This document shows positions 2,767-33,800 of a stretch of DNA of 64,000 nt, one piece after another. The stretch's first letter is position 1, and each line of letters starts with the position of its first letter. The DNA is taken from NCBI GenBank assembly GCA_024195265.1, contig JAJLRJ010000011.1, positions 20,198,166-20,262,165 on the forward strand, in the 5' to 3' direction. The notes beneath the pieces are model-generated. The model saw only the letters and a program-made list of their open reading frames with translations, searched no databases and was not told the DNA's origin. This DNA comes from Dendrophyllia cribrosa. Lineage: Eukaryota; Cnidaria; Anthozoa; Scleractinia; Dendrophylliidae. The position numbers and the translations under genes were made by a program.

Positions 2767-3683
2767 ACAAAATACTCGCTACGGAGTTAACAAAAGCCGG
2801 TTGGAAAACGACATTTCCAGTTGCGATAAGTGATCTTCATGTTGATGACTCTCCATTTTCATCGACCCAATTTGGCAACAGGACATTCCAAGTTCAGAAG
2901 AAAATTTTGCTAGTACATAAATCCTGGGCTAAAGAACGTTCAAAGCTTTCCCACTTCGTTACGCGCTTTTTGGACGGTTTGCGTGCTCCGTATATGATCA
3001 GTGAAGCCGACGATAAGCCTTTCTTGGATCTGAAAGAAGATCTAACGGCTGACGTTACCGTTGGTAGATATTCTCTTATCGTCTTCGTAGACATCAAGAC
3101 TTACATAGATCTCAAACCCAATGTTCGACAAACAGTTAAACTTTACTGCAAGAAATTTGGGATGGGTATCCTGTTTTTCATCTCCAATCACGCTGGGTAC
3201 ATACCTGAATTTCGTATCGAGGTGATTAGACCACAGAAGGAGAGACAGACCTTAGATGTCGAGGTTAACGAAAATTCAAAACTTTTACGAATTACACGTA
3301 GGGGTGGTTCAACGGTGAAACCATACGTACAAAAGGGACAGGGAACTAGATGGAATTATATACGCTATGATCCACTGCAAGTGCCTTACGAAACTGTTGA
3401 ATTCGCCATAAATCGCAAAAAGAGGCTAAAAAGAGACCTAGAAATTGCAGTCACGGAACAAGCCACAGTTATTCTGGACGATGGTGGAATAGACGGGATT
3501 AAAAAAGTGTTTTTTGGTGGCGGTTTTCCGTTTTTTCTTCACACGATGCTATTTATGGACAGTTTAGAGTATTTATCGCCTGTCAGTCCGACTGTGTTTT
3601 CGCTTGAGAGATACCTGCAAATTGACGTGGATGATATTTTCATCGCCAAGACTGGGATAAGAATGAAGAGAAAAGACGTTCTG
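2767..3683 (+). CDS. NDST-A exon 1 (first visible): N-terminal region and start of deacetylase
   Basis: The acceptor is TTTGTTTCTTTGCAG and the donor GTAAGT. Two bases complete a split codon, then 305 codons follow, ending at a codon boundary as in NDST-B. The exon encodes the NDST N-terminal domain and ends with the deacetylase motif [15 protein letters not shown]. The ATG-less open frame begins well upstream of position 2907, so a start near there would be an artefact. The frame also runs on past the donor into a MITE up to 3887; that tail is intronic. Confidence 0.85.
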
Positions 3684-6600: not shown

Positions 6601-9600
6601 TTGCGACACTAGCTGCATGTCTAATGTAACATATGCTCTACAAATGTTGCATTTTTTCCATTACCGAAATCGTTTCAAGAAGAAAAACTCAATTCTACAT
6701 TTGCCGACGACTGCGCCAATGAAAACAATGCGACATTTGTCGAGTGTCTGTTACACTAACCTATTAATATTTTTGGTGGCGTTATCCTAGGAATATTTCG
6801 TGCTACTTGTTTCCTAGCAAAAAAGTGACCAGAGTTTTATAAAATTCGCCGTCAGCCGCGAGCAAAGCGAGCTCGCGAGGGAAATGAGTCAAGGATTTAA
6901 AAACTAATTAAGGTTTCTTTGCCCTTCGAGGTATCACTTGATGTTTTCCTGAATTTTGCGTATGCATGAGCAAAGATACTTAGTGAAATATTTAGTGCAG
7001 TTTTGGCCCGAGTTCACTGGTCGTTAAAGAGCGGTGGCCGTTTGGGGCGGTGAGGGTGTGATATAGGCACAACTCATCGAATCTGAAAGTATGTAAAAAA
7101 AATTAAAATTCAAGAAAAATCCCAAATTTCATTTTGTAAAATATTGAAAAACAAATGGTACCATGCAAAAGTACTGTTGAAGAGGTTTCATTTGAATGGT
7201 CACACCGTGGTATAATTTCGTTGACAGACTCAAAAGTTAGAACAACACTAAATGTCTCCATAATTGACTCTGGGATTGAAAGGGTTGAGATCTGCATGAT
7301 TACTCAATGAAAATGCGAATCGAAAGAAGGACAAAAGGTTCAAAACAAACATCACACATGTTAAAAAAACCGTTAATCAAATGATGTTGTACAAGATCGT
7401 TTAACTACAGTGCGGCCATTAACATTAAAGCTACTGAGCAGTACTTTCCTGTGGTGGTGTTAAATATGCCCTCAAAGTGGCTTTAAACTTTGAGTCTGGA
7501 TGGAATCTTCAACCATTAAGATATAAAAAGCTACTCAGCGGTGCTTTGCTAATACTCTGCCGCCGTTTATTAAGCTGTAGTACCAGGTTGTTTTATCTTA
7601 AGCCAGAAATCCTAAAGGTGTTTCGATACATACAATTTGGAACGAGGTTAAGTTTATTGACCGTGACCCACACTGGTTCACCCATAGGGTTAAAGAGGCT
7701 TTCCACATAAGACTTCATCCTAATAACATCAACAGCGATAGTGGAATCGAAATTCCTGAAGCATGGATGCCTACAATCAAGAAGCACAACAGCCGATCGA
7801 TAACAAATCGGACCTGTGAGGGAACAACATCTATTAGGGATAGTAATGAGGATCGAAATGCACCAACAGCAACAAACCAACGTGCCACATAAGCGACACG
7901 AAACCAATCGACCTCATCGCGTGATGAATACTAGCTGTAATAGCAGTCGAAACGTCGCGATCAACATCTCAAAGTGACTCCATCGTGAGACAAACAAACA
8001 AACGTTCACCTATCATACACACCACGATGAACAACCACCACATTTTTAATAACACGTATTTTCTGATACGAGGATCGCGCAAACTTTCACTTTTAGTGAT
8101 TTTGAAGATTGTTATTTATTGTCCTTATGGTAATGTAGATTTTATCAGAAAATACACCTTGCCAAACTTCGAACCAAAACCAGTCAGTGGTAAAAATTTA
8201 ACATCGATCCGACTTGCAGAAAACCGCTTAAACGTCGGGGATTGAAAAATGTAGGTATGGTCGTCTCAAAACTGTATCGAAACACCTTAAGTGAGTTCTC
8301 TCTCTTCTCCTTTCCGTGGTAACTGATTTCGCTTTGACGCAAGTTGCTTTTTCTTTTGCAGGAGATGATTTCAGTGCAAGAAAGGCTGTCACAGAAGATA
8401 TCAGGATTTAAGTTCAACTTGGGTTTCTCGGGACGCAGCTTTAGACAAGGAGATGATGAAGAAGACGAGGGAGATAATGCTCTAATAACACACGCTCATA
8501 AGTTCACGTGGTTTGGTCATCTTTATGATCACGAGCAACCTCATAAACACACTTACTCTGAGATCGTCAATTCGCTGAACAAAAACGAGGAATTCGCCAA
8601 GGTAGCGTCAGATGTCTCCTTCTAATGTAACGACCTGTGAAGGATGAGGTCCTTTTAGTGCGTCCATGTGTTGATGTAAACTATTCTGAGGTTGCCCTGC
8701 TGGTTGTGCCCTTGTTGGCTCTGTCTCTCTCCATTGCGTGTATGAGCAGAAATGATAACCAGAAAGCAAAATGCGGGGGCTGATCTTGTGATGGACCAAT
8801 GCCCCTACCAGGGAGTCACTTGTTTGTGTGAAAGTTTAAGGTTATTTATTCCATCAAGATAAAAATTGTCCAACAATTTTTGGAAACTTTCCTGCCCTAA
8901 TTTGTTTCGAAATGCGCAATAAAAAACCGGCTAAGGCAAAGCGATCGCGAAAGATATCTGATGGTCTATTTATCGCTGTAGTACTGGCTATAGGCGCGGT
9001 GGTGAAGTGCCGGGTTAGCGCGTTGGATTTCAGATCCTGGTCTCGGGCGTTCTGTTGTTTCCTTAGACAAGAAACTTTACTCCACCTCCACATTGACTCT
9101 CTCCACCCAGGTGTATAAATGGGTACCAGTGGCATAATGATGCGGTAACCTCAATTGCGATGGACTTGCAACCCATCCAGGGGGAAGTAGTCCTAGTTGC
9201 TTCATGCTTCGGAAACCGGCTCCGGCCAAGTGGGACGCCTGTGGCTCGTGAGCGACCTTGCCTAATCCCTGCGTATGGTTATCGGTTATACAAGTGGGCC
9301 GCCTGTGACTCGTACCTAATCCCTGCGTATGGTTATCGGTTAAAGGTTTATGTCACATTTTGCGGTAGCTGTAAGCACAGACAAAAATAAGTATAATGCC
9401 GCGACCACAAGGGGCTATTTTGTGCATGTTGTATATGGCAAAGGCACATAGCCTCGAATGGCACTGCGTCAAAACGTTCCTCGTGTGCTAAAATGACAAG
9501 GACATAGTTTTATGCCCACTAGTAATGGGTATGTGTTCTTTAAGCGATAACGTTATTCTCTGGAAGAAATCTTTTTAAACTCTTTTAGGTCACCGTCTCC

Positions 9601-12600
9601 CGTGCTCGTTGAGGAGGAATCAAAGAAATCTCTCTGGGTTCTGAATGCGCGCGCGTTCGTGCAAGTTATACATGAAATTATGCGCAGTAGTGATGCGTAA
9701 TGTAATCCTGAGAAGTTACTAACTTAACCTTACCCAACTTATTAACAAAGATTAATAGAAATATTCAGTCGCTAAGGAAAACACCAAATCTATTGTTTGT
9801 CTTTGTAGAAACATGGCATTCCAATGAATCTGTCATACATGGTCGCTCCGCATCACTCGGGCGTGTACCCAATACATGAACCACTGTATGATGCGTGGGC
9901 AAACGTGAGGCACATCCGTGTGACTTCCACTGAGGAGTATCCGCATTTAAAGCCCGCTTGGTTCAGACGAGGATTTATTTACAAAGGAGTCAAGGTAAAC
10001 GGAGTCACACATTCATAAAAGAGCAGTTTTCAATTGACTGTCGAAAGTAATTACACAATTGCTTTGGTTTTGCATTGCTACGCTTTGTGATTGGCTAAAA
10101 AATCTCGCGCCACTTTCTCGACCAATCAGAAGTAAAACCAAAACCAATCGTGACTTGCTCGCACGCGTTTTCCCGCGCTTGGCGCCCGCGACATGTAATT
10201 GCTTCGAGCTCTGATTGGTTCATTGGATTGTTTACGACTGTTGTGATTGGTCAGAGTAATTACTTTGGTTTTGGTTTTACGACACTCAATTGAAAACTGC
10301 TCTATAGCCGTACTTGTCCATGAGATTGGAGAAAAATTACATCTATTAAAATCATTTCCTCAGTCTCCATTTTTAGATGTAATATATCAAACACTTCTCG
10401 GTGTGGATTCCTGATGAAAAACTCTTTCGAGTGTTTGATCTAGCCCCTCAAACTGGTCATTAAATGCGGAGAAAGCGAAGGGAAAAAAAAAACGCCAAAA
10501 TCTATGAAAATTAAGACCGGGTATCCAAACCTTGTTTACGGTAGTGATTTCTTTATGTTCTCGTCATGGATTATCAATTAGGTTTAGATGTTGTGATCAT
10601 TTACAAGTTGAAGCCGCTACATTGTTATCGCGAGATTACGGCAACCGAAAGTGATGAGGGTGAGAAGAAAAGTGTAGAAGTGTAGCTAATGCTGTGCCGA
10701 AGTCAACAGCCGGCTATAAACCAAATGTGCGTGTAAGTTGTTTCAGGAATGGACACAGAACTGTACTTTGCACTTTGGACTTTCCCCAGCGAACCACCTT
10801 TACTTTTATTTATTTTAGTGAGGGTAAAAAATGCCTTCAGTATTAAACCAAATTTTACCTTCCGCCAACCAAATCATGATGGATGCTACGAAGCCACACA
10901 ATTTCACTAAACTCAACTGGTTACTTATACTCGTTCCACAAACTGTGTACCTTTCAGGCTTTAGCGCTGTAGAAAACAAAACAAACAAAATTAAAACGAC
11001 CACAAAAAGTAAACTTATATAAGCTAAATGAGCACAGTTGGTAAGCACAGGGGAAATTCTGACGGATTACTCCTGGCAAAGTTTTAGAAACTAGAGGGTG
11101 TAATTTTTTAATTTTGTTGGTTCCAGGTTCTTCCCCGTCAGACCTGTGGCCTGTTCACCACAACGAACTTCTTTTACGAGATCAAGGGTGGAAAGAAGGC
11201 GCTGGACAGAAGTATCGAGGGCGGAGAACTGTTTGAAACTCTTTTACGAAATCCAGTGAGTGATACTCATATGACAGTTTGTGATCGTCGTGTTGTGCTT
11301 TTACAGTAAATCAAATCTCGTGAATGCAAAACAACGTAAGGTTAAGTCCACTGGTCGGTTTTAATTTTCCATACTGAGTTTGAATTGAAGAGTAAAACAG
11401 ATTTGAAACGACCAAAACATCTTAGCAGGGGTGGCGCAGTGGTGAGAGCGCTCGCCTCCCACCAATGTGGCCCGGGTTCGATTCCCGGCCCGGCGTCATA
11501 TGTGGGTTGAGTTTGTTGTTGGTTCTCTCCTTGCTCCAACAGGTTTTTCTCCGGGTACGCCGGTTTTCCCCTCTCCTCAAAAACCAACACTTCCAAATTC
11601 CACTTAGATCTGGAAAGTGTCCACAATTAGTACTCGCGTACTAAATACTTTGACACTTAAATAAATTGATTTTTTTAAATATGCATTGTGTGAAACGAGA
11701 CTGTCTAGACAACTGAATGACTTAATACACTGGAGAATTAAAAAAAGTTTACATCTGAGTGATTGATCGATTAATCATTGATCATTAATCGAGTGAACAT
11801 TTGCATAATTGTCCCTGTTTTCTGTATCTCGATTCGCATATTCACGAGATGTAATAGGTACTTCCCTTGTAACTTCATCTATTGGTCTCGCCTCGTAAAT
11901 TCACGGCAGTTTAGCTAATGAGGATTTAAAGAGTTTTGCGTCAGATAACTGTGCAGGTTGGTGGCGATGGAAAGGCGGCGTGAGAAGGACAGGAAAATTG
12001 GGAAACCTGACGCTGAAGGGGTGGGTTCGGAACGAGAAGACGGGACGTCCATCTTCCTGTCCCTCGCCTTTTCGTACCCGCTCTCTGTAGTTCTTCTTGC
12101 CGCTTCCCACTGGAAGACCTTAGATAACAACGGTCTGGATCACCTCGGACACTTAATGAGAATTATATAACGTAATGTCGACACTTAGAATTTTATTTTC
12201 AATAAATTTTTAAGTGTAAAAAAAGAAATCTAAAATCCCCACACAGGATTGAACCTGTGACCTCAGCTAGGTTTAGGCTTACGTAGCCTACCGTACCACT
12301 GTACCACCTAGCTTCTCGGGTTGTTAAGGCCTGCTAACCCCAACTGCTAACCCCAACTGCTAACCCCAACTGCTAACCCCAACCTCAACTGAAAGCTAAC
12401 CAGTTACTCCGTTATATAAGTCTCAATAAGGCGTCCGAGATGGTCCAGGCCGTTGTTATCTAAGGTCTTCCCTTCCCACTATCTCAACGCTTAGAATCAA
12501 TAACTCAATATTATTTTTTCTCACAGGTTTCAATTGTTATGACCCACATGACAAACTATGGCAATGACCAGTTAGCGCTCTACACTGTCAGCCGACTGGT

Positions 12601-15600
12601 CAACTTTGTTCATCGCTGGACTAACCTTAAGTTAAAGTATGCTTCGCCGATTGAACTCGCTGACGTCTACTTTAATTTATTTCCAAAAGATGAAGTTCCT
12701 GTTTGGCTGGTGAGTGCTTATAACGATTAGGGTTAACATGCCTTAATACGGATTTTGCGTTCGAAAGTTCGATTTTCCATTCAATTTATGTAGAATATCA
12801 ACTGAACAATTCGAAGTCTCCAACCTAAACAACACTACCGGAAACTACTGCTTGGTAGCTTTCATATAGATTGCAGCTGTCCCTTTTCAGTCAATCGAGC
12901 GGGCGAGCTAATCACGAAAACAGGCTCGGCGAGACTGGAGCGAGTGAACGAGCCGAGGAGAAACTGGGGTAGAGGCCTCTTCCCCAGCGCCCCCTCGGCT
13001 CGCATTACTTTCGCTCGCTCGGTCAATCGCCGATCGCGTATTTGCTCGCCCGCTCGACTATCCAGAGAGGGACTGCTAGCAGTCTAGAATGGTCACACTA
13101 GTATTACCTTCCAAGACTTTAGATTTGACTGTGGCAGTGAGAGGGTAAAATAGCTGACCTGTCTTATCTGTCCAACAGAGCCCGTGTGATGACAGTCGCC
13201 ATCTTCAAATCTGGCCCAGTCATAAGTCTTGCAGCAGGCTCCCCTCATTCCTAGTGACCGGTCCACCGTTTGGGGGCCTGGACATTTTAGTTCCACTTCT
13301 CAAACTCCACCCGGATTTCTTGCATATAGTTGCCGCTGACAATGCCACGTTGGGGACGAGCTTCTTCAACTCGGACAACTACATGAAAGGCTTAGATTGG
13401 TAAGGCGAAAACAACAACAACAAAGCTTATGAAAAAATACAAGAAACAAAAGTTTCCTTTTCACGCAGTCCAAAGAGTTTTTTTAAGATTTAAAGGACTT
13501 TAACACAGTTTTCATTTGCTTGTAAAATGTAAAGTAATTTTGTTTTCACGTTGGGTTTGAAATGTTGCGTTTTCAAGTGATTTCACTGAAAGTCAAATAG
13601 CATTCCATATTCTTCTTGCTGCACGTGTTCTAGTGCCTTCTCTATCCCACAGCTACAGGCCGACCACTAAATTATTAGTAAATATTGTGTTCATGTCGTA
13701 TCGTTTAGTCTCTAAGGTATCGACATCCGTTTACCATTACCAAACTGAACTTTGCGTGACTATTTTTTTTTTTAAAGGTACATGAAGTTTTTCCCTCGTC
13801 CGACCAGAGCAGAACAACAGTTATCGTATGAAGTCAGCGATGAGTATTTTACCGACCATGATTCGCCATATCGTGCAAGCAACCTCCTCAAATCAGCTAA
13901 AATCCTGATTGTTCTTGAAGATCCTGTTAAGAGAGCCTTCTATCATTATCAGGTCGGTATTAAAGGGGCTATGGCACCATTTTTAGTGTTACTTAAATAA
14001 AAAACCAAAAGACGTATTTATATCAGTGGAAACCCAAAAATAATGGTCTAGTTTTGTTTCAAATTATTCTACTAGTGCTCTAAGAGTAAAAATAAGTGTC
14101 TTGGGCTGCAGATGGCCAGAATGGAAACGGATTGCGACTTGAATTAACTGGACTATTTTTTTCAAGTTTATCTCTTTGTGTTTTGGAATATCCGCTAAAA
14201 CTCTCAGTATTGTTGATTCTCTCTTCGAAATTTAAAATCTTATTCTTGGTGTTCTGAAAGCATTCCGTGTATGACAGAGATCGTAGTTTTAATATTTGGG
14301 GCTGTTTTGACCCGGAAACGTCAAATCTTCATAAGATAGCTCTTTTTCTATCAAAGGAAACTTTAAAATAATGGTCTAGTTTTAATGTGGGTCTAGTTAC
14401 AATATAAGTGTACAAAAAGTATTGTTATGTTGTTTTTAGCAGTGTTCGGTCCCGCAAAATAATTGTCCTGTAAACAGCCTTTCTGTCCTTGAAAACCGGT
14501 GCTACGCCTGGGTCAAGTGCTTCAAGAAAGCTTTCGTTCAAAGAGCTATATATTATACAAGGAACTAGTTCGATCCAACATCCCAGTCGTTCTTTATTTC
14601 TGTCGTGTATGAGGCCCTCGACACATCGTAATTTGATGTCCACTGATGGCGTGATTACTAAATTGGATGCTATACAGTTCGCACTGTCTAAGCCATTTAC
14701 ATTCGGAAGCAGCTTTATCTGTCCGCCTTAGAGAGGTGTTCGCCTTATACAAAGTTTAGTTACAGACGAACAAGTGAAATTCGGCTAAAACCAGACGATA
14801 ATTGCCAGTGGCGTAGCCAGCCTATAGGCCCATAGGCCCGGGCCTACAATTTTTTCAGCCCACTTGTGTTACATTTTTAAGAATTGGTAATGAAAAATTC
14901 AAATCCATTCTCTTTTATCAAATATTAGGATTTCGGTGCTGTCAAGATACACATAAAATCACCAGAAAGTGAAGGATAAAGCATTTTCAATGGCCAACAT
15001 CGAAAAATTTTCCGGGGGGGTATGCTCCCGGACCCCCCCTAGAAGCGGCCCTTGCGGGCCGGATGGCCAGGCCTACAACTCTTCTAAAAGCTGGCTACGC
15101 CCCTGATTGCTGCCCGTCTTAATAAAATGTAGATGTAAAGAGGTGTCCGCCTTACAGGGGTGTCCGTCTTGCAGGGGTGTACGCCTTACAGGGGTGTCCG
15201 CCTTACAGGGGTGTCCGCCTTACAGGGGTGTCCGTCTTAAGATAGTTTACTGTATGATAAAAATCAAGACGCTTTCAGTTCAAATTTCAAACGACCGTTT
15301 TGCCACTCTGCTGACTAGTATTTCCAAATCACAACTGCCAACGGAGCAGGAAGTTCTTATCTAACATCCCATCATTTTTCTAGCATCTAAAAAATGTTCA
15401 AGGTATGGATCTACCCAACTTTGATGACCTCGTGAAGTCCAAAAGCCGTCCTGATCTGTCCGAAATCAGACGAACTATTCTGGGGGCTGGGCACTACTCT
15501 GAACACATCGCTCGTTGGATGAGATACTACAATGCCAAACAGGTTAGTCCTGTCAATCCTGTCTTATCCGCCGCAAAGCCTGGTTTACACGTTCGACATA

Positions 15601-17183
15601 AGCATAAGGGCAAGCGCAAGCATAAGCACAAGAAACCTACGTGTAAACCGGTGCGACGCTAGCATTGCAGCCCTTCGCTTGTGCTTGTATTATCCCGGTT
15701 TACACGTGCGACACAGGCACAAGCATAAGAAAATGGAACGGTTTCCTTTTCCTTGTGCTCGTGCTCGTGCTCGTGCTCGTGCTTGTGCTTGCATCGTTGC
15801 GTCGCACGTGTAAACCTGATAACGCAAGCACAAGCACAACTCTTCCTCGTCCGCCCGTGATATATTTAAATTTGGCCTCGTAAGAGCGGTGTTCAAATTT
15901 TGCGATTGCTTTGCAATTGGTTTGCATTGCTACGCTTGTGGTGGGCTAAAAATTCTCGCGCCATCTTCTTAACCAATCAGCTCTTGTCGCTGTCTGCATG
16001 TATTTTCTCCGAGTTCTGATTGGTTCATTCTAATTGTCCGCGTCTGTTGTGATTGGCCAGATTGGTCTGGTTTAACCGCTCTAATATAACAAACTGTCTC
16101 TCCTCAGATGAATATCGTCAGCGTGGATGACTTGGTTTCTAGGCCAATCACTGTGATGAATACCATTCAAGAAGCTGTTCATGTAGAGACCCGCCTGGAT
16201 TACTCTCAAGTTTTAAGGTGAGTTGCAGCTGTGCCTGGATATTGAAGAAGTTAGAGAGATTTGTTTTGAACCCTTTCACTCCTAAAAAGCAGCCAAGAAT
16301 AAATACCAAATTTCTGTTTAGAAAATACAGAGCTACTGCTCAGTAGCTTTCATTTGAATGGTCACACTTGAACATTTCTGCCACGGACTCAAACGTAAGA
16401 ACCTCTTACACAACGTAATAAAGAGCACCACATGAAAGCACTGCTCAGTAGCTTTCATTTAAATGGTAACACGGCATTTCATCCACAGACTCAAAAGATA
16501 GCTCTCGAGTTGGCTTGACAGCTCATTAGATAGAGCATCGCACCAACAGACCGTTTCGAAAACGACTGGCGGCCTATGGAATGTTTTAACTTCCATCACG
16601 AACTTGAGAACAGTTTCATTGCATTTGCCACTGGGCGAAACACCGCAAGGTTTCCCATCCGTCTCCCCCTTCCCCCCCCCCCCCCCCCCCCCCCCCCCTT
16701 CCCCCCCCCCCTCCCCCACTCACCCAAACCCCGGCCCTGAGCCCGAAAGCTTACTCGCAGGCTAGCTTTTCCATCCCAGTCCTCCAGTGCCGCGCAGTCA
16801 CGCTCGCCCAAGGCTTCCACTATTTTTCAAAGTGGTCTATGATCATTAGGTTATAGATTTGAATCCCGTTCACGCTTGATTTTTTGGCACTGCTACGCAT
16901 CACTGAAATATTTCATCCGTGGTTCCTAAGTTCACTTTCGCTAATATTTGTTTATAAACTGATTGTGTTAACATCAAACAGGTATGATGAAGAGAGTGGC
17001 CTATACTGCCCTAAATCGTCCACTAATGTGACGGAATGCCTAGGATTCAATGAATCCAGAAAAGTACCTCTCAGCCCGCAAACCGAGCAGCACTTGCAGC
17101 GGTATTACTCCAGGCATAACCAGAATCTACTCCGGATGAACCAGAAAATCGAGTTTCCACTGCCCAAATGGATTCATGGGTAA
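2767..17183 (+). CDS. NDST-A: heparan sulfate N-deacetylase with degenerate N-sulfotransferase domain (ten visible exons)
   Basis: Exons 2767-3683, 8362-8601, 9809-9994, 11127-11255, 12527-12709, 13179-13399, 13778-13952, 15384-15542, 16108-16217 and 16982-17183 join in frame into 839 residues plus stop. All junctions are GT-AG. NDSTs are Golgi type II membrane enzymes that deacetylate and then N-sulfate GlcNAc in heparan sulfate. Deacetylase motifs are kept (DVDDIF at the end of the first visible exon, [11 protein letters not shown] in the third). In the sulfotransferase half the PAPS loop [10 protein letters not shown] seen in NDST-B reads [10 protein letters not shown], and the Glu of FEEVQFF, the Lys of EKSANYF, the Ser of HSWYQ and the Lys of GKGKGR are all replaced. 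The two C-terminal disulfide cysteines and the His after the YQ exon end remain. The N-terminal anchor exon is missing. I infer a deacetylase-only paralogue rather than a pseudogene, because no stop or broken splice site is seen. Confidence 0.88.
3711..3992 (-). mobile_element. MITE family 1, copy 1
   Basis: 282 bp with about 17-bp terminal inverted repeats (GAGCAGTTTTCAATTGA and complement), flanked on both sides by TA. It is in reverse orientation to the copies at 5896, 10021 and 59776. It holds several CCAAT/ATTGG motifs and no gene. It begins 27 nt after the exon 1 donor site. Confidence 0.85.
4417..4612 (+). mobile_element. MITE family 1, degenerate internally deleted copy
   Basis: It shares TTTTCAATTGAGTGTC, GCTTTGGTTTTGCATTGCT and the terminal CAATTGAAAACT with the full copies but lacks about 90 bp of the middle. 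Confidence 0.7.
5137..5605 (+). repeat. 106-bp tandem repeat, about four units
   Basis: The unit start GTGGTTCTAACTTTTGAG (or a variant) occurs at 5241, 5345, 5451 and 5557, giving periods of 104 to 106 bp. Each unit also carries TGTGACCATTCAAATGAAAG and AGCAGTACTTTCCTGTGG. Single units and fragments of the same family recur in both orientations near 1970, 7150, 7420, 16330, 36720 and 38450, always in introns or spacer. Confidence 0.85.
5896..6177 (+). mobile_element. MITE family 1, copy 2
   Basis: A full-length 282-bp copy flanked by TA on each side, with the same inverted ends as copy 1 and opposite orientation. Confidence 0.85.
6180..6466. mobile_element. MITE family 4 (GGATAGCG palindromes), complete and partial copies
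   Basis: A complete element at about 6309-6466 has ends GGCCCCGGTTGTT and AACAACCGGGGCC and inner arms AGGTGGATAGCGCTA and its complement. A partial copy with the same GTGATTTATCCAGTGGATAG phrase lies just before it at about 6180-6300. Confidence 0.7.
7617..7960 (+). pseudogene. Retroelement ORF 3' remnant (Penelope/GIY-YIG type, tentative)
   Basis: A frame from about 7646 reads [20 protein letters not shown] followed by a segment ending [13 protein letters not shown], then stops near 7890. I recognise this from memory as the C-terminal part of GIY-YIG-bearing Penelope-like ORFs of marine invertebrates; that assignment is tentative. There is no start and no RT domain here, so it is a truncated 3' end. 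A hammerhead-like fold follows it at 7916-7961. Confidence 0.5.
7916..7961 (+). ncRNA. Hammerhead-like ribozyme motif, degenerate
   Basis: Stem I ATCGC/GCGAT encloses GTGATGA (consensus CUGANGA, first base changed), one extra A, a stem II of ACT-GCT against AGC-AGT with one bulged A, then GAAA and CGTC. Penelope-like retroelements are known to carry minimal hammerhead motifs. Cleavage activity is doubtful because C3 is replaced and there is an extra base before stem II. Confidence 0.35.
8362..8601 (+). CDS. NDST-A exon 2: deacetylase
   Basis: The acceptor is TTCTTTTGCAG and the donor GTAGCG, a weak but valid GT. It encodes 80 residues with FNLGFSG and DDEEDEGD, and the histidines of HLYDHEQPH that align with HMWRHQKAH of NDST-B. 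The exon is in phase 0 at both ends and three bases shorter than its NDST-B counterpart. Confidence 0.9.
8983..9258 (+). mobile_element. tRNA-derived SINE
   Basis: It starts with a pol III A-box-like GGCGCGGTGGTGAAGTGCC, followed by a conserved body with CACCCAGGTGTATAAATGGG and GCGATGGACTTGCAACCCAT. A piece with the sequence CCTAATCCCTGCGTATGG is directly repeated just downstream at 9262-9345. Confidence 0.6.
9809..9994 (+). CDS. NDST-A exon 3: deacetylase metal-site segment
   Basis: The acceptor is TTTGTCTTTGTAG and the donor GTAAAC. 186 bp, phase 0, the same length as in NDST-B. It encodes [12 protein letters not shown] and [12 protein letters not shown], both strongly conserved in NDSTs. 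The residue after KPA is Trp where NDST-B has Arg. Confidence 0.92.
10021..10302 (+). mobile_element. MITE family 1, copy 3
   Basis: A full-length 282-bp copy with the same inverted ends. It has TA on the right and AA on the left. It begins 26 nt after the exon 3 donor, almost the same offset as copy 1. Confidence 0.85.
10303..11126. other. NDST-A intron 3 remainder, nothing recognised
   Basis: AT-rich sequence with a few short imperfect hairpins. No exon, RNA gene or clear transposon end is seen. Confidence 0.5.
11127..11255 (+). CDS. NDST-A exon 4
   Basis: The acceptor is TTGTTGGTTCCAG and the donor GTGAGT. It has 43 codons, the same length as in NDST-B, and opens with [11 protein letters not shown], a nearly invariant NDST segment. 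[12 protein letters not shown] closes the exon. Confidence 0.92.
11424..11679 (+). mobile_element. tRNA-derived SINE
   Basis: The head contains A box GTGGCGCAGTGGTGAGAGC and B box GGGTTCGATTCCC at the proper distance for a tRNA gene, preceded by a GCAGG start. The body with TTTTTCTCCGGGTACGCCGG and the AAATAAATTGATTTTTTT tail are not tRNA, which marks it as a SINE rather than a tRNA gene. Confidence 0.75.
12104..12479. mobile_element. Inverted-repeat element enclosing a tRNA-like segment
   Basis: A 70-bp arm at 12104-12171 (AGACCTTAGATAACAACGG) pairs with 12411-12479 (CCGTTGTTATCTAAGGTCTT). Between the arms, on the minus strand at about 12233-12315, is a tRNA-like stretch with A box TGGTACAGTGGTACGG and B box GGTTCAATCC; its anticodon loop lacks the invariant U33, so it is a pseudo-tRNA or SINE head. 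Confidence 0.6.
12331..12382 (+). repeat. 13-bp tandem repeat, four units
   Basis: Four perfect copies of CTGCTAACCCCAA. It resembles a short expansion inside the surrounding element. Confidence 0.9.
12527..12709 (+). CDS. NDST-A exon 5
   Basis: The acceptor is TTTTTCTCACAG and the donor GTGAGT. 183 bp, the same length as in NDST-B. It encodes [17 protein letters not shown], matching [17 protein letters not shown] in NDST-B. This is the linker between the deacetylase and sulfotransferase halves. Confidence 0.92.
12867..13086. mobile_element. MITE family 2, copy b
   Basis: It is close to the copy at 2054-2270, with the GAGCGGGCGAGC/GCTCGCCCGCTC arms and the right end GCTAGCAGTCTA. The left end is slightly mutated. 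Confidence 0.75.
13179..13399 (+). CDS. NDST-A exon 6: degenerate PAPS-binding exon
   Basis: The acceptor is ATCTGTCCAACAG and the donor GTAAGG. 221 bp, the same length and phase as in NDST-B. It reads [22 protein letters not shown] where NDST-B has [22 protein letters not shown] in the corresponding place, shown here only as far as the motif: the PAPS 5'-phosphosulfate loop with its catalytic Lys (Lys614 in human NDST1) is gone. TFEEVQFF of NDST-B is ATLGTSFF here, removing the catalytic Glu (Glu642). The frame stays open and GLDW is kept at the splice junction. Confidence 0.9.
13778..13952 (+). CDS. NDST-A exon 7: degenerate sulfotransferase core
   Basis: The acceptor is a T-rich tract ending AAAG; the donor is GTCGGT, weak. 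175 bp as in [13 protein letters not shown] stands where NDST-B has FEKSANYF, and [12 protein letters not shown] where NDST-B has [12 protein letters not shown], so the conserved Lys and the 3'-phosphate-binding Ser are replaced while the fold-defining spacing is kept. Confidence 0.9.
13960..14400. mobile_element. MITE family 5, degenerate copy
   Basis: It shares TTAGTGTTACTT-like, AATGGTCTAGTTTTGTT and GGCTGCAGATGGCCAGAATGG phrases with the better copy at 18050-18444. It starts with AAAGGGGCTATGGCACC. The right end is unclear. Confidence 0.5.
14806..15105. mobile_element. hAT-like MITE
   Basis: Ends CAGTGGCGTAGCCAGC and GCTGGCTACGCCCCTG are inverted repeats of the kind common in hAT transposons. 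Subterminal arms GGCCTACAA and complement lie inside. Partial ATTGC target duplications flank it. No transposase. Confidence 0.65.
15128..15240 (+). repeat. 16-17-bp minisatellite
   Basis: About six units of GGTGTCCGCCTTACAGG. It is related to the much larger GGTGTCCATCTTAGAGA array in NDST-B intron 4. Confidence 0.8.
15384..15542 (+). CDS. NDST-A exon 8
   Basis: The acceptor is TCATTTTTCTAG and the donor GTTAGT. It has 53 codons against 57 in NDST-B. It starts with His (human His716 position, conserved) and ends [18 protein letters not shown], matching [17 protein letters not shown] in NDST-B. Confidence 0.88.
15585..15845. mobile_element. MITE with GTTTACACGT ends and GTGCTC tandem core
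   Basis: Phrases GGTTTACACGTTCGACA, GTGTAAACCGG, GGTTTACACGTGCGACA and CGTCGCACGTGTAAACC alternate in orientation. Short tandem AAGCAYAAG and CGTGCT repeats lie between them. It looks like two adjacent or nested copies. Confidence 0.6.
15880..16083 (+). mobile_element. MITE family 1, diverged copy
   Basis: It keeps TTTGCATTGCTACGCTTGTG, the AATCTCGCGCCA-like block and three ATTGG motifs of family 1 but has lost the exact ends. Confidence 0.55.
16108..16217 (+). CDS. NDST-A exon 9
   Basis: The acceptor is TCTCTCCTCAG and the donor GTGAGT. 110 bp, phase 2 end, three bases longer than in NDST-B. It reads [20 protein letters not shown] where NDST-B has [20 protein letters not shown], a strand-turn-helix that is conserved in shape more than in residues. 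Confidence 0.82.
16324..16505 (-). repeat. 106-bp family, about two reverse units
   Basis: It contains GCTCAGTAGCTTTCATTTGA and ATCCACAGACTCAAAAG, the reverse complement of the 5137-5605 units. Confidence 0.7.
16665..16728 (+). repeat. C-rich homopolymer tract
   Basis: Long C runs separated only by single or double T. Confidence 0.85.
16982..17183 (+). CDS. NDST-A exon 10 with stop
   Basis: The acceptor is ACATCAAACAG. One base completes the split Arg codon, then 66 codons and TAA. It has the disulfide pair C-x9-C seen in NDST-B, but [10 protein letters not shown] of NDST-B is [10 protein letters not shown] here, which replaces the substrate/PAPS Lys (human Lys833) by Glu. The protein ends PLPKWIHG, close to the family's usual PTWL end. 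Confidence 0.87.
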
Positions 17184-23280: not shown

Positions 23281-23283
23281 TCC

Positions 23284-26277: not shown

Positions 26278-27324
26278 ATGAGATTGTGGCGATTTCGCAC
26301 TGGATCGATACTGCGAAGGTTTATTATTGGATTAGTAATCTTAAGCGTTGTATCATGCTGGATTTTAGTGTACCACGCTTCGAAAGAATACAAAGTTGTG
26401 AGACGTGTCCCTGTCTTCACAGAAGAAAAATGTTATCACCCACGAATTGGAAGCAATGTTCATTTAGGATCTCGAGAATTTCAAGAGTTAGGGAACAACG
26501 CATCGCACAAACTAGAGAAAAGACTTTTGGTTGCAATTCGCAAAACCTCCATAACTTTTCGAACGGAGATTTCTACAGTTTTAGAGGCAAATCGTTTTCC
26601 ACATCAATTTGTTTACCTCGAGCCAGGAGACAAAACGGTTTTCCCAGAGCTGACGCATTTTGGCGTCGGAAAGTTTTCTGCTGTCGTATTTGAAAGCGTG
26701 AAGTTCTATTTAGCGCTGGGACAAGCCAACAAACAATTAATCGACGATTACTGTCGTAAATTCGCTATTGGAATTGTTTTATTTACAGAACAAGAAGCAT
26801 ATGAACTTGATACACACGCATTCGAAGAATTTCACTTAGCTATCAAGACGGGTGTTAACGATCTTCAAGATGTTGAACTAAATCCATCGGCATGCTTGCT
26901 CAGACTTACTCGAGCGGGCGGTATTATTGAAAAATCCCCGATTTTAAAATGGAACGTGTTTTTTCCTAACCACAGCACTTACGAAGCTGTTGAGTTTGCG
27001 ACGCAGGAAGTCACTGTTACAACATTACACTCGAACAAACAAGAGCTTTCTGAAGTCAACTTCGAAAATGCTGTTCTTGATGAGAAGGTCACAACAACGC
27101 GATACACAACTGTTCTAACTGACCTTGGACATCTTGATGGCATACGACGTGTTTATTTCGGAAGTGGTTTGTCTTTCTGGCTTCATAAGTTATTGTTCGT
27201 TGATTCTTTGGCATTTGTTTCGAGAGGTCAATTTGCCCAGTCTCTTGAAAGAAGATTTATTGTTGATATCGATGATATATTTGTTGGAAGAACGGGGATT
27301 CGCATGACGAAAGAAGACACTCAG
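26278..27324 (+). CDS. NDST-B exon 1: signal anchor and N-terminal domain
   Basis: I chose the ATG at 26278 because the frame upstream offers only a TTG before it, and this start puts a short basic cytosolic tail ([13 protein letters not shown]) directly before a hydrophobic helix, as expected for a Golgi type II enzyme. It has 349 codons and ends [19 protein letters not shown] at donor GTAAGA. NDST-A splits this region with an extra intron. Confidence 0.9.
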
Positions 27325-30300
27325 GTAAGAGCTTAAACTTATATATATATTATTTGCAATATTTCTGTCTGTTTTACGTTGAAAAGGCAAAGGTATTATT
27401 CAAAAGTTTTCTTTATTTCTCCATGGCATCTTTAAATATGCTTCAAAAATGTTATTCAGTTAATTTCAATTGTTTATATACACCGTTCTTTTAAATAAAT
27501 TGATTCAACTATCATTGAAATGTAAATGTCTCTTCTGCCCTGCTGTCATGTATGAAAGTGTACTCTTTAAAATAAAAGTGGATTTACAGGTAAACACGAA
27601 ATTTAAATTACTTTTAGTGGATTATTTTAAATTTTAAATTTTGTGTTCCTGATGTGTACATGTATGCATTAAATTAAAACACTTTAACGTTTAGCTTCAT
27701 ATAACTTCTATCCAACCATTTAAAAAACCTAAAAAGAAAAAAAGAAAACTTAACTTAATGCACTGTTGCATTTAAAATCTACACCCACCCCCCACCCCTT
27801 GGTTGCGGACTTAGCCTTTCCTTAATTCTTACCCAAGAATCCCATTGAAAATGAATTGACACCTAAAGACTTCCATAACCAGGCTGAACCGAATAGGTTG
27901 ATCCAAACCCTTTTTAGGTTCATTTATTTGGTGCCTATGCTACTAAAAGCAGAAAAACATAGCTCTTGACCAGGCATTGGATTAAGACATGGTCAGATTA
28001 TCCACTTTTTCAACAGGTCTGGACCCAATGTTGCGTCAATGTGCCTTAAGTCATCTTCTGTTTTACAGGCAATGATCTCTGTTCAAAAGAAACTGCAAGA
28101 GCGAGTACCAGGGTTTCATTTCAATCTGGGTTTCTCTGGTGGCTATTTCTTGCATGGTAACGATGAAGAAGACGAGGGGGATTGGGAACTTATAAAGAAT
28201 GCAGACAAGTTTTGGTGGTTCAGCCACATGTGGCGTCATCAAAAAGCACATGAAAGAAACACTCTGGAGGAGCTAGTGGAAGATCTAAAGATGAACTTGG
28301 AGTTTGCAAAGGTGAGGTTCAAAACACAGACCAACCTGTATGTTAGTGTACATTGTGGGTAAAATCTGTTCTCAGGTTGAATCAGTATTCAATCTAGGTT
28401 AAATATGTACCCAGTAGTCAATCTAGGTAAGCTAAACCTAACCCTAATGCTAACCCTAACACAAAGCTAACTGTCTCCCCTTGTACGAAGGTACACCTAG
28501 CTAGTGGTGTGATGGCTACCTGTAGCTTTTCGTTAGAGTTAGCTTTGTGCTGGGGTTAGAGTAAGCTTATCTACATTGAATACTGTGCACACATTTAACC
28601 TAGATTGAATACTGATCTAACCTGTGACTGGATATAACCTGTAACATATACACTGTACACTGAGAAAAATCAAGTCACATGTGGGATATTCACAGTAGAG
28701 CACAAGCATATTACATGAAGGCTATGTAACACTTACATGTAGTGTGATTTCAGTCTATATTAAAATAAAACTTTGATTGATGCATACACTACAGCCTGTA
28801 TATCCCTATTGGCTGTGTAGCCATTGTACACTTTTCTAAAAACATTTCACTTTGGGTCGGTACAATACCACACTAGAAGGGCAACTGGAGATATAAGTTT
28901 GGCTGTGACATCAATACAGGATTACCAGTTTTGCGATTTCTCATTTCCTGAGTATATTTTGCTGTGTCTCAAAGAAGAAGCATGGTTTTAAGGTGTGTTG
29001 TTGAACATGTATAACATGCACACCAAAACAAATGCAGGAACCAAGAAACCATGAAACTGGTGATCGTGTCTTGACGTCATATTTCACGGTGTTAGAAAAA
29101 AAAACTCAATATATATTCAGAGCACAAAATTAACGTTTTTCTCAAGGAGACATTTGGCTCCTAAATATTCCAAAGTGGTCGCCAAGTCCAAAAAGTTAGT
29201 AGCCATTCTTTATTCCAAAAATGAAAACAAAAAATATTGACATAAACAAATGAGAAGGCAGGTACAAAAGTCGGAACGGATCAACTCGGATCGGATCGGA
29301 CCGGATCCAGTTCGGGTCGGATCAACTCGGATCGACCCGGATCGACTAGGATCATAAAAAAAAATGAAGTGAGAAAAAAATAAAAATTTTACCCAATTGT
29401 AGGTTAAAATTCCTCTCAGAAATACGCTAAATCAAGTAAGCTTTGCAACGTTTTGAGCTCCGTGGCATTCACCCGCCATTTTGTTTACTAGTGCCAGTTC
29501 CTTTCTGATCAGGTTACAAACTCGTGGTCTTGTTACACGCTCCATCGATCGATCAGATAAACGTGGACCCAGCTGAAGGCGAGTCAAAAGTGACTTAAGC
29601 ATGGTTTCCACCTTGATACTCCCCACCATAAATAAATTCATGTCGATTCAGGGTTAGTTCGACGGTACGCAACTGCGAGTTCTATAAACTTGTGACAAAT
29701 AGCAACATCGCCAGCTCTCGCCTGCTGTAAAAAAAAACAAAATGAACATTCTGAGTTACAGAAACTTTAATTTTCTTGAAATTAAGCATTTTCATTGAGA
29801 AAGATGGCCTAGATTTTACCTTCCTTGCCTTCAGCTGGGTCCATGTTTATATGATCGATAGATAGTGGGGAGCTTGTAACTAAGGGACGGACCATTATTT
29901 TTCTGGAGGGGGGGATGAGAAATTTTCCTCTGCAAACAATTTTTTTTAATTATTGCGCCTCTGCAATCAGTTTTTTTAAAAGAGCACCTTCCTGCAAACA
30001 TTTTTTTTTTTAAATTTTTTTCTTACAGTGCTATCTTCTCTGGTGCTAAAAATATCTGAGTTAATAAGCTATTTTTCGGGGAAAAAAATCGATAGTGCTT
30101 TAGCCAATTATTTTGGCCACATACGCTTTTTGTAATTTATAGTTTGTTGTTCCTTTATACATCACTCACCGTTTTAATCCCTACGCAGCAACTGACGCAA
30201 ATAAAGGGCATACGACAGGAAATATGTAAAGGGAGTAGCAGGCTTTTTCGTGATTCCACAGCACATCTTCGTTGACGTTGTTCCCACAGGCCATCATACT

Positions 30301-30821
30301 CGTACCACCCGGCCTGTGGTACCAGCGGTAAAGGCAGGCACATTGCTGATTTAAAATGATTCCCGTCGCCATAGGTTACTCCAAATAACTTGTAAACAGT
30401 TAGTGACCCATTAGCTTTGATGGTGATATCGTCAGAAAGATGACAGACTTCTGAAACTCGCCCATTTCTCGACAGAATGTCAACATTAAATGGCAAGGCA
30501 AGCGGCATTCCTTGAATGAAAACCTGTTGAGATTCTGACCTTAAGCCCTGGCACAACGAAGAGATTTTTGGCTGCTTTTTGCGAAGGCAAGGTGAAGGAG
30601 TTGTCTTGTGCAGCCAAATGAAAAGAGACATCGCTATTTTCAGTTGTATTTGCTTTCGCATCACTGAACAATATTTCAGTTTTGTAACTAATATTTTATC
30701 TGACTTCTCTGCAATTTTATTTATTTATTTTTGCTACATTTTTATACATATCGTGTTTGCAAACAATTTATTTTGTCTTTTCAGGCCCTGCAAACAATTT
30801 TTTTCAATATTTCTCATCCCC

Positions 30822-30875
<54 letters not shown>

Positions 30876-33800
30876 TTCCAAAAAAATAATGGTCCGTCCC
30901 TAACTGGCACGAGTCGTAACCTGATCCGAGAGGTACTGGCACTAGTAAACAAAATGGCAGGTGAACGCCACGGGGAACGCCACGGAGCTCTAAACGTTGC
31001 AAAACTTACTTGATTTGGCCTATTTCTAAGAGGAATGTTAACCTACAATTGGGTAAAATTTTTATTTTATCTCATTTCTTTTTTTTTTATGATCCAAGTC
31101 GATCCGAGTTGATCTGACCGGACTGGATCCAGTCCGATCCGGTCCGACTTTTGTACCTGCCTCAAATGAGAGCAGAAGCGACAGTGCGACACGTAATATT
31201 CTGAGTCCACAATATACACTGTTAGCAAAAAGACATTTGAATGCACAATATACAAAGTAGCCTCTGAAATATCCAAGATGGCGGATGTTGACGTTTCACT
31301 TCATAGAGTTTGTGACGGTTTTGCTACAAACCTCGTCGTTCGCACCGATTTACCCACCTTCAAGCTTTATTTAATTGCACAATGTGTTAAGGTAGGATGA
31401 AGCATAGGGTTCTGGTCGTCAGTGTGGCGACTAACTTTCGAATGTTGGTCGCCAGCACGGAAAATTTATCAGGAAATGTATCAGGCGCAATTTCATGCCC
31501 TATATATATATATATATATATTTTTTTTTTCTTAGCAAAACACCATGTAGATTTAATCAAGCAAATTAAAAAAATCTGTCATTTACACTGTAAGGGTCGG
31601 TTATTATCATAAGGATGTGACTGATGAATTCTTGGCTTTCTTTCTTGCCAAGGGTCGGTTTTTATCGGTTATCGTCGGTCAGTTATTATCATTAAGATGT
31701 GACTGATAATTCTTTGCTTTCTTTCATGCCAAGGAACATAACATTCCTGTGAATACCTCTTATGCAGTGGCTCCTCACCACTCCGGGGTTTTCCCTCCCC
31801 ATGACATTCTCTACGAGGCCTGGAAGAGAGTTTATAACTTGAAAGCGACATCAACTGAGGAATATCCTCATTTATATCCAGCCAGGTTCCGCAGAGGCTT
31901 TGTCTATAAAAACATCAAGGTGAGATACCAACAGTAAATAGGCTTCTGCCTTCTTGAATACACACAACCTCAAACCTGATTAGCTATATAGTAAATGCTC
32001 TTAAGATGGACACCTCTCTTAGATTAAGGGCTGGTTCCCACTAGCGACGTAAGCGGAATAGTAAGCGGAATCGAAATCGCAAGAACCTCTAGTAGGAATC
32101 AAAACAACGTACATGTAAGCAGATAGTAAGCGACGGAAGCAGAAGCGAAATTAGAAGAAAAAGGAAAGCTTCTGATCCTTCTGATTGTGATTTCATCGAG
32201 CTTCCGATTCGGATTGCAACTCCATTTTATATTTCCACTAGAACATAAGGCTTCTTACACTTTTGACTCTGACTCCGCTTTCAACAATGTCGCTAGTGGG
32301 AACCAGCCCTAATGATTGGCTGGTTCTGGCGGAATGTCACTTGTTTGTCTGTAACTAAACTCTCTCCAATAATAATAAATAGTGACTGTAACTGTAGCTG
32401 TAGTAGTGATAGTTTTTAATATATTTTTTTATTTTTTTAAAGAGAGAGGGCTATATCAAGTTTGTGCAGTAATATGGAGATTTTTAGAGAGGGAGTTTAA
32501 AGGACTTATAAATGGCACTTTATTTAAACTGGTTACATGTTGTACTGTACCTTTATACAGGTGCTCCCTCGTCAAACCTGTGGCCTGTACACCCACACTA
32601 TCCATCTTGAAGACTATCCCAGAGGACAGAAGAGATTAGAAAACAGCATCTATGGGGGTGAACTGTTCCAAGTCATTGTTAACAATCCTGTGAGTAAACA
32701 ATCAATTGAAAACATATTTCTTTTAAGCAGAAACTGGACTTCTAATTTATTTTTGCTGCCACTGTTACTTTGACAATTACTTGTTGGTTGAAGCTCAAGG
32801 ACTGTTTAAAACACCTGTTGTAAAAATTATTTCAAAACAAGTTTGATCACTGTCTTTTCTTACATCATTATTACATGTAATTACAGCAACCATTTTCAAT
32901 TTGTTTTTGAAAAATATTGTAAAAAAAATTCAAAGTTGGATCATTTTAACATGTTAATCTCCACTCAAAATTGCTGACACTTGCTCCTTATTAGTCAATG
33001 CAAACCAAGGAGAAACCTGTGAACCCATCCATGGTGGCTAACAGAAGGATTGGTGCACTGAAAGACCCCTGGCTACCACTCATATAGCTGTGGTCATTTT
33101 GTATAACTTGCATTTCATATGCAAATTGTTAATTGCTTTATGCAATCAGCTTTCTCCAAGAATGACATCATCTGTTTTTGAAATGAGTGACTGAAATGTG
33201 GTGGGGACCATTAAATTTTTAGGTTCCATCATAGAGGTGTCCATCTTAGTGAGGTGTACTGTACATCTTAGAGAAGTGTCCATCATAGAGATGTGTCCAT
33301 CTTGAGAGGTGTCCATCTTGAGAGGTGTCCATCTTGAGAGGTGTCCATCTTAGAGAGGTGTCCATCTTAGACAGGTGTCCATCTTTGTAGAGAGGTGTCC
33401 ATCTTAGAGAGGTATCCATCTTAAAAAAGGTGTTTATCTTAGAGAGGTGTCCATCGTAGAGAGGTGTCCATCTTAAAAAAGGTGTTTATCTTAGAGAGGT
33501 GTCCATCTTGAGAGGTGCCTATCCTCGAGAGGTGTGCATCTTAGAGAGGTACCCATTTTAGTGAGGTGTCCTTCTTAGAGACTTGTCCATCTTGAGATGT
33601 GAGGTGAGTGAGGTGTCCATTTTAGAGAAGTGTCCATCTGTCCATCTTTGAGAGGTGTCCATCTTAGAAAGGTGCATGTCCATCTTGAGAGGTGTCCATC
33701 TTAGAGAGGTGTCCATCTTAGAAAGGTGTTTATCTTACAGAGGTGTCCATCTTAGAGAAGTGTCCATCTTAGAGAGGTGTCCATCTTGAGAGGTGTCCAT

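What the first reader, a model, noticed from the sequence alone, without database searches (positions are those of the whole stretch)
13179..17183. NDST-A has lost the sulfotransferase active site but keeps an open, normally spliced frame
Seen: against its neighbour NDST-B, NDST-A replaces [10 protein letters not shown] by [18 protein letters not shown] by [16 protein letters not shown] by [15 protein letters not shown] by RAFYHYQ and CLGKGKGR by CLGFNESR. In human NDST1 numbering (from memory) these remove Lys614, Glu642, Lys676, Ser712 and Lys833. Known: Lys614, Glu642 and Lys833 are needed for N-sulfation. The deacetylase motifs, the C-x9-C disulfide, His716 and all exon phases remain. Inference: a deacetylase-only enzyme, or a regulator of NDST-B, that decouples two steps normally done by one protein.
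Basis: partly seen in the sequence, partly recalled or inferred. Interest (0 to 1): 0.9.

Follow-up and report, generated by a model that had tools for sequence, protein, structure and literature searches.

The report
Coral NDST without its sulfotransferase site
A coral appears to carry a second copy of the enzyme that starts patterning heparan sulfate in which the sulfate-adding half is dead while the acetyl-removing half looks intact and maintained, which would separate two steps that animals normally perform with one protein.

Summary
Spliced NDST-A is one open 881-aa frame of 11 exons; the first exon, encoding a membrane anchor, lies 4 kb upstream of the window. The sulfotransferase active site is lost: K614F, T615G, T617L, T618D, E641L, E642G, K676V, S712Y, R782V, K833E. 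Five probable orthologues (two Acropora gene models, three from unnamed sources) share the loss; the three unnamed ones sit on contigs so short that they are probably spliced transcripts. All five tested deacetylase residues (D319, D320, H389, H393, H529) are kept. Of near-invariant NDST positions, NDST-A lost 28 of 85 in the sulfotransferase domain but 7 of 108 in the deacetylase domain. Best reading: a maintained, sulfotransferase-dead, deacetylase-competent NDST paralogue. Deacetylase activity is inferred, not shown (H491T and W391Y are cautions); a non-catalytic partner of NDST-B is the main rival. Codon dN/dS could not be computed.

The parts
2767..3683 (+). NDST-A exon 1 (N-terminal domain and start of deacetylase domain). 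The preceding first exon, encoding the membrane anchor MRVFTRAKRLRFSRKLCLVVIPVGWFAIFITL, lies outside the window at contig C3:20194090-20194213 (-4075 to -3952 in window terms).
   Evidence: same N-terminus in P0001-P0005
3414..3437 (+). NDST-A residues 258-265 RKKRLKR|D: polybasic loop with an R-x-K/R-R site in the N-terminal domain, specific to the NDST-A clade at this place (furin-type consensus is recalled)
   Evidence: 6 of 6 NDST-A sequences, 0 of 179 others in the aligned region
3630..3635 (+). deacetylase pair D319-D320 (NDST1 numbering), intact
   Evidence: function from PMC10864358 (passages)
8362..8601 (+). NDST-A exon 2; metal ligands H389 and H393 intact (within 8518-8532, motif HLYDH; M390L and W391Y between them)
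9809..9994 (+). NDST-A exon 3 (deacetylase domain)
11127..11255 (+). NDST-A exon 4; C486 kept, H491 replaced by T (11145-11162)
12527..12709 (+). NDST-A exon 5; H529 intact (12545-12547)
13179..13399 (+). NDST-A exon 6: former PAPS loop GPQKTGTT replaced by GPPFGGLD (13260-13283); ETFEE (638-642) replaced by NATLG with a new N-glycosylation sequon (13341-13349)
13778..13952 (+). NDST-A exon 7: K676V (13833-13835), S712Y and W713H
15384..15542 (+). NDST-A exon 8 (begins with the H716-equivalent codon)
16108..16217 (+). NDST-A exon 9
16982..17183 (+). NDST-A last exon: PAPS-lid loop CLGKSKGR replaced by CLGFNESR (17037-17060) with a new N-x-S sequon (17049-17057); disulfide cysteines kept; C-terminal 22 residues identical in all six NDST-A sequences (17115-17180)
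26278..39463 (+). NDST-B, the tandem paralogue with an intact sulfotransferase site (exons 26278-27324, 28069-28311, 31734-31919, 32561-32689, 34720-34902, 35341-35561, 36455-36629, 37448-37618, 38243-38349, 39357-39463); its C-terminus is cut by an assembly gap at 39464-39963

Best explanation
NDST-A is a tandem NDST paralogue of what is probably a stony coral, expressed in relatives and maintained by selection, that can no longer bind PAPS or transfer sulfate but keeps the metal-dependent N-deacetylase. Most likely mechanism: the membrane anchor places it in the Golgi lumen, where it removes acetyl groups from GlcNAc of nascent heparan sulfate and leaves free glucosamine (GlcN). That GlcN is then either sulfated in trans by NDST-B or left as N-unsubstituted glucosamine. 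The old sulfotransferase domain persists as a folded scaffold whose catalytic face has been remodelled, and substrate anchoring may have moved to the newly cationic N-terminal domain. Shown by sequence: open frame, loss of the PAPS site in six sequences, retained deacetylase residues, divergence no faster than NDST-B. Predicted by model: retained sulfotransferase fold. Inferred: Golgi location, deacetylase activity, GlcN product, shift of substrate anchoring.
For: Open 881-aa frame. K614, E642 and other PAPS-site residues lost in every NDST-A sequence with data (6, or 5 at K676 and S712), while K614 and E642 are kept in 179 of 179 others. D319, D320, H389, H393 and H529 kept in 6 of 6, C486 in 5 of 5 with data; alanine mutants of those five abrogate turnover in human NDST1 (PMC10864358, passages). 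Near-invariant positions lost: sulfotransferase 28 of 85, deacetylase 7 of 108, Fisher p 3e-6. Stem branch 0.65 in the deacetylase tree against 2.75 plus 1.26 across the midpoint root in the sulfotransferase tree. Crown divergence, window v Acropora (P0003 for A, taken as Acropora because nearly identical to P0004; P0121 for B), differs in no domain: 42/164 v 42/172, 47/293 v 56/294, 73/243 v 51/211; Fisher p 0.80, 0.39, 0.17 (P0121 is truncated in the sulfotransferase domain). Three orthologues sit on contigs of 3175-3359 bases encoding 872-895 aa, while this gene spans 21 kb, so those contigs are probably spliced transcripts. AlphaFold model of the 94%-identical P0001 matches the NDST1 sulfotransferase domain 1nst at TM 0.90, rmsd 2.2. 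New sequons at human 638 (6 of 6) and 832 (5 of 6), 0 of 179 others. Sulfotransferase net charge -2 to -4 in five NDST-A sequences against +6.2 (sd 3.1, range -2 to 18) in 179 others; N-terminal domain +7 to +11 against -1.2 (sd 3.7, range -13 to 8).
Against: No activity data, and no expression data in this species. H491 (176 of 179 others) is T in all five NDST-A sequences with data, and M390L, W391Y, Y498I, P499K lie in the deacetylase domain, so substrate or rate may have changed. With some outgroups the deacetylase half of A is also faster than B (44 v 23 with P0015, 52 v 31 with P0018, 58 v 19 with Nematostella), though not with human (32 v 29); the N-terminal domain is faster too (27 v 14, human). 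In NDST1 the sulfotransferase cleft anchors the polysaccharide (PMC10864358 section 11); A has lost 8 of 14 conserved basic sites there, so it may bind heparosan poorly. Positions that replaced lost residues are no more conserved within the A clade than other sulfotransferase positions (18/26 v 135/216, p 0.67).
Confidence: 0.6

Rival explanations
1. NDST-A is a pseudoenzyme that regulates NDST-B or the wider heparan sulfate assembly line, for example as a heterodimer partner, an EXT-binding decoy or a substrate-holding factor, with little or no deacetylase activity of its own.
For: A PDB entry titled human NDST1 homodimer exists (9f6z), so pairing within the family is plausible. The sulfotransferase fold is predicted to be retained while its site is dead. 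The last 22 residues are identical in all six NDST-A sequences, as an interface might be. H491T, M390L and W391Y lie in the deacetylase domain. A review says NDST1 is influenced by EXT1, EXT2 and EXTL3 (PMC7570499 passages).
Against: All five tested deacetylase residues are kept in 6 of 6, and 101 of 108 near-invariant deacetylase positions are kept. A purely structural protein should not favour that half so strongly.
Confidence: 0.22
2. NDST-A is an N-deacetylase with a changed substrate or place of action (another GlcNAc polymer, mature heparan sulfate, or extracellular matrix) rather than a supplier of GlcN to nascent heparan sulfate.
For: The cationic character of the sulfotransferase domain is lost and new sequons sit at its former site. 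New polybasic R-x-K/R-R|D loop in 6 of 6 against 0 of 179, a possible convertase site. Residues between and near the metal ligands changed.
Against: The deacetylase domain still matches the heparan sulfate deacetylase family at E 2e-85 and is as close to human NDST1 as NDST-B is (154/293 v 157/294 identical).
Confidence: 0.13
3. NDST-A is a decaying pseudogene or a gene-model artefact.
For: Large loss of conserved sulfotransferase residues. The Acropora gene models P0004 and P0005 lack or misread some exon segments.
Against: 881 codons open over 11 exons with canonical junctions; three complete orthologues on transcript-sized contigs; crown divergence no faster than NDST-B.
Confidence: 0.02
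4. The gene still makes a bifunctional enzyme through an alternative exon carrying the PAPS loop.
For: None found.
Against: Translated searches of the window and 10 kb upstream found only NDST-B's exon and A's own. The genome search returned those two plus three hits lying in long single open frames (354, 338 and 448 aa) that look like 3-O-sulfotransferases, a label given by eye and from no call. K676, S712, R782 and K833, in other exons, are also lost.
Confidence: 0.01

Closest known systems
[quoted passage not shown]
   Same: Three-domain architecture (HSNSD_N, HSNSD-CE, Sulfotransfer_1), membrane anchor, phases of exons 2-10 (with NDST-B), deacetylase residues, cysteines of both disulfides reported for NDST1.
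   Different: PAPS loop, E641/E642, K833 lid and most PAPS contacts replaced; new sequons at the dead site; reversed domain charges; polybasic loop in the N-terminal domain.
NDST3 and NDST4 of vertebrates
   Same: Paralogues with unequal activities; a review says NDST3 has poor N-sulfotransferase activity and can give unsubstituted GlcN, and NDST4 lacks deacetylase activity (PMC7570499 passages).
   Different: The NDST3- and NDST4-named sequences among the 177 other retrieved proteins keep K614 and E642; NDST-A has lost the site outright.
Human NDST1 changed at Lys614
   Same: Lys614 is reported as critical for N-sulfotransferase activity (PMC4359090 passage); Lys614, His716 and Lys833 mutants were simulated in PMC3733922 (passages).
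   Different: NDST-A is a natural, multi-residue, lineage-fixed loss rather than a point mutant.
Agd3 fungal galactosaminogalactan deacetylase
   Same: Named in the NDST1 paper as a relative of the deacetylase part; hit 17 of the fold search here.
   Different: NDST-A retains a full sulfotransferase-fold domain and NDST sequence identity; the Agd3 Pfam match is below cut-off (E 0.07).

Membership tests
[quoted passage not shown]
   PF25119 93.6 bits, PF12062 286 bits, PF00685 40.4 bits, all over cut-off; PF13469, found in NDST-B, is not listed
[quoted passage not shown]
   six of six (C486 five of five with data)
[quoted passage not shown]
   P612, Q613 and K614 read P, P, F in six of six; P, Q, K in 179 of 179 others
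[quoted passage not shown]
   G, E and Y/N; others E 179, K 178, S 179 of 179
[quoted passage not shown]
   hydrophobicity scan, exon read, orthologues; topology inferred
[quoted passage not shown]
   needs assay; so it is filed as an NDST-family paralogue, not as a bifunctional NDST
Processed or decayed pseudogene | Frame breaks, missing introns, neutral divergence | tested here: not met
   codon dN/dS itself not testable here
Pseudoenzyme partner of NDST-B | Binds or modulates NDST-B | not testable with these tools
   only indirect support: NDST1 homodimer entry 9f6z

The most novel reading that the evidence does not exclude
NDST-A is a deacetylase split off from N-sulfation that has been re-plumbed. 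Glycans block the dead sulfotransferase cleft, heparosan is held by a new polybasic patch in the N-terminal domain, and proprotein convertases cut at R-x-K/R-R|D to release a soluble deacetylase from the Golgi membrane. Corals could thus write free glucosamine into heparan sulfate independently of N-sulfation, possibly after secretion.
Probability: 0.15. Interest if true: 0.9.

Novelty: new variant of a known kind. Interest (0 to 1): 0.72.

Why it matters
The two NDST activities are normally encoded in one chain, and a paper on the family states that all investigated invertebrates have a single Ndst gene and that the GPQK motif is conserved in all species (PMC4359090 passages). A maintained coral paralogue without that motif is an exception to both statements. 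It offers a natural experiment on whether deacetylation can be uncoupled from N-sulfation, and a genetic handle on the origin and use of N-unsubstituted glucosamine in heparan sulfate. Database records for the two Acropora orthologues call them bifunctional, so that annotation is probably wrong. Paper searches on cnidarian, coral or Acropora NDST listed nothing that, by title or abstract start, describes such a gene; one search listed 12 of 27 papers, none of the coral or anemone papers was opened, and the library lacks most subscription journals.

Tried and rejected
Codon dN/dS: no orthologue DNA is reachable (the searchable DNA collections are microbial, viral, phage, plasmid or E. coli; metagenome scans were capped at zero and not tried), so protein-level rate tests were used instead. 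Gene placement: trees put NDST-A on a long branch; grouping with hexacoral NDST-B is not rejected (AU p 0.239 deacetylase, 0.389 sulfotransferase), so the date of the duplication is unresolved. P0201, P0203 and the gappy P0005 were dropped from the domain trees (40 of 43 rows kept). The species was not identified; the NDST-B tree puts it beside Montipora and Acropora. Alternative exon 6 was sought and not found. The idea that the sulfotransferase domain survives as the heparan sulfate anchor was weakened by charge loss and new sequons. The idea that replacement residues are unusually conserved was tested and not supported. The R-x-K/R-R pattern as such is not rare: 166 of 201 other NDSTs hold one somewhere after residue 60, mostly in a conserved PARxRRGF stretch; only its place and basic density set NDST-A apart. 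Protein searches list the best 120 (of 1001, 1248 and 1198 matches), and searches scored only the roughly 8000 candidates sharing most words, so other sulfotransferase-dead NDSTs could have been missed. Residue tables used the 182 proteins, not the 22 added. Absence of NDST-A from other cnidarians is not shown.

Full report
WHAT IS THERE. The finding's interval 13179-17183 is exons 6-10 of a longer gene. Joining exons gives NDST-A, 881 aa, open throughout, with AG before each window exon and GT after each internal one. Its first exon lies about 4 kb upstream of the window (C3:20194090-20194213) and encodes a short basic tail and a hydrophobic anchor; the same N-terminus occurs in five probable orthologues. 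A phase-1 intron separates this exon from exon 1; NDST-B lacks it. Phases at the start of exons 2-10 agree with NDST-B at 26278-39463, and exons 4-7 have equal lengths in both (129, 183, 221, 175). NDST-B's last exon runs into a 500-N gap. A family search of the whole 627-Mb genome returned deacetylase-domain matches only at these two genes, 6 exon matches from 9 scored candidates. The host is taken for a stony coral because its NDST-B groups with those of Montipora and Acropora.

WHAT IS LOST. Human NDST1 residues 126-874 were taken from the PDB comparison and checked for numbering. In an alignment of 185 rows, 6 NDST-A sequences were compared with 179 others (177 retrieved proteins, human NDST1, NDST-B). 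K614, T615, T617, T618, E641, E642, K676, S712, R782, F816, K833 and Y837 are replaced in every NDST-A sequence with data. NDST1 binds PAP through K614-T618, R782, K833, R835, Y837, W817 and F816 (PMC10864358, passages); of these A keeps G616, R835 and an aromatic residue at 817. A simulation paper gives Lys614, His716 and Lys833 roles in sulfate transfer and Glu641 in glycan contact (PMC3733922, passages); the roles of Glu642 as base and Ser712 as phosphate site are recalled. H716 and cysteines 586, 601, 818 and 828 are kept in 6 of 6. The one K833 exception among the others, P0121, is a predicted isoform that departs from the usual sequence before that residue.

WHAT IS KEPT. D319, D320, H389, H393 and H529, whose alanine mutants abrogate NDST1 turnover, are kept in 6 of 6, and C486 in 5 of 5 with data. 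Of positions at least 97% constant in the others, NDST-A lost 28 of 85 in the sulfotransferase domain, 7 of 108 in the deacetylase domain and 4 of 19 in the N-terminal domain (sulfotransferase v deacetylase Fisher p 3e-6). The seven deacetylase losses include M390 and W391, between two metal ligands, and H491, five residues after C486; this is the main reason not to call the deacetylase fully intact.

IS IT MAINTAINED. Protein searches gave five NDST-A relatives at 70-94% identity, then a drop to ordinary NDSTs near 40%. P0004 and P0005 are Acropora digitifera and A. cervicornis gene models, both lacking or misreading some exon segments. P0001-P0003 are unnamed and complete, and lie on contigs of 3175-3359 bases, too short for a 21-kb gene unless spliced; P0003 is nearly identical to P0004 and is taken as Acropora. 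In domain trees the NDST-A stem is 0.65 for the deacetylase domain and 2.75 (plus 1.26 across the midpoint root) for the sulfotransferase domain. After that burst, divergence between the window species and Acropora does not differ between A (P0003) and B (P0121): N-terminal 42/164 v 42/172, deacetylase 47/293 v 56/294, sulfotransferase 73/243 v 51/211 (Fisher p 0.80, 0.39, 0.17). So the dead domain appears again about as constrained as the live one. Relative-rate counts show the sulfotransferase acceleration with all four outgroups (for example 71 v 10, human). For the deacetylase domain A and B are equal with human (32 v 29), but A is faster with P0015 (44 v 23), P0018 (52 v 31) and Nematostella (58 v 19), the last a doubtful outgroup; the N-terminal domain of A is faster too (27 v 14, human). 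Codon dN/dS was not possible.

NEW FEATURES. (a) N-glycosylation sequons sit at E638 (6 of 6; 0 of 179 others, also within 3 columns), three residues before E641, and at S832 in the PAPS lid (5 of 6; 0 of 179; P0001 lacks it); a third at 824 is 6 of 6 but also in 21 of 179 others. (b) Net charge of the sulfotransferase domain is -2 to -4 in five NDST-A sequences (gappy P0005 left out) against a mean of +6.2 (sd 3.1, range -2 to 18) in the others, while the N-terminal domain is +7 to +11 against -1.2 (sd 3.7, range -13 to 8). Of conserved basic sites 8 of 14 are lost in the sulfotransferase domain, 1 of 10 in the deacetylase domain and 3 of 7 in the N-terminal domain. In NDST1 the sulfotransferase domain makes the high-affinity contact with K5 polysaccharide (PMC10864358 section 11), so NDST-A should meet its substrate differently. 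(c) A loop in the N-terminal domain reads R-x-K/R-R followed by D in 6 of 6 and in 0 of 179 others in the aligned region, with 6-7 basic residues in ten against at most 4; the pattern elsewhere in the protein is common in NDSTs (166 of 201). The loop is poorly ordered in the model. It could be a convertase site, a heparan-binding patch or both (both consensus forms recalled); this is a lead. (d) The last 22 residues are identical in all six.

STRUCTURE. The AlphaFold model of P0001 (mean pLDDT 78, pTM 0.77, 25 sequences) matches human NDST1 full length and the 1nst sulfotransferase domain at TM 0.90 (by target length), rmsd 2.2. The model was built from an alignment with intact NDSTs, so fold retention is supported, not independently proven. 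A homodimer entry of NDST1 (9f6z) keeps the heterodimer rival open.

MECHANISM. Best reading: Golgi-lumen deacetylation of GlcNAc without sulfation, handing GlcN to NDST-B or leaving it free. Free GlcN in heparan sulfate is known, and a review links it to poor sulfotransferase activity of NDST3 and to EXTL3-NDST1 interplay (PMC7570499 passages). Some 3-O-sulfotransferases accept it (PMC8632541 passages), and the genome search met three open frames that look like 3-O-sulfotransferases (class judged by eye). My probability that N-sulfotransferase activity is lost: about 0.97; that deacetylase activity persists: about 0.7; of the whole best reading: 0.6.

NOVELTY. A family paper states that all investigated invertebrates have one Ndst and that GPQK is conserved in all species (PMC4359090 passages). 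Paper searches on NDST with cnidarian, coral or Acropora terms (listings and abstract starts only) showed no description of this gene. It is a new variant of a known family. [quoted passage not shown]

Noticed in passing
window 21569-24886: A perfect 1541-nt inverted repeat (arms 21569-23109 and 23346-24886, 236-nt spacer) between NDST-A and NDST-B. Each arm holds a 393-aa ORF; the one scanned has a GIY-YIG domain and looks reverse-transcriptase-like (Penelope-like, by recall). Either a very recent palindromic insertion or an assembly fold-back.
   Followed up: partly
window 39464-39963: A 500-N assembly gap, followed by a homopolymer C tract, removes the end of NDST-B's last exon.
   Followed up: no
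window about 16665-16716: Long poly-C run in the NDST-A intron before the last exon; other poly-G or poly-C runs lie near 1450 and 30840.
   Followed up: no
window 58488-58802: ABC-transporter ATPase frame (PF00005), a downstream neighbour useful for synteny.
   Followed up: partly
P0121 (Acropora muricata NDST-B isoform X2): Predicted isoform departs from the usual C-terminus before the PAPS lid; possibly a gene-model error, possibly an alternative end lacking the lid in the intact paralogue.
   Followed up: no
loci L011, L012 (contig C20) and L013 (contig C22): Three open frames (354, 338 and 448 aa) resembling heparan sulfate 3-O-sulfotransferases by eye, weakly matched by the NDST-B PAPS exon.
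   Followed up: partly
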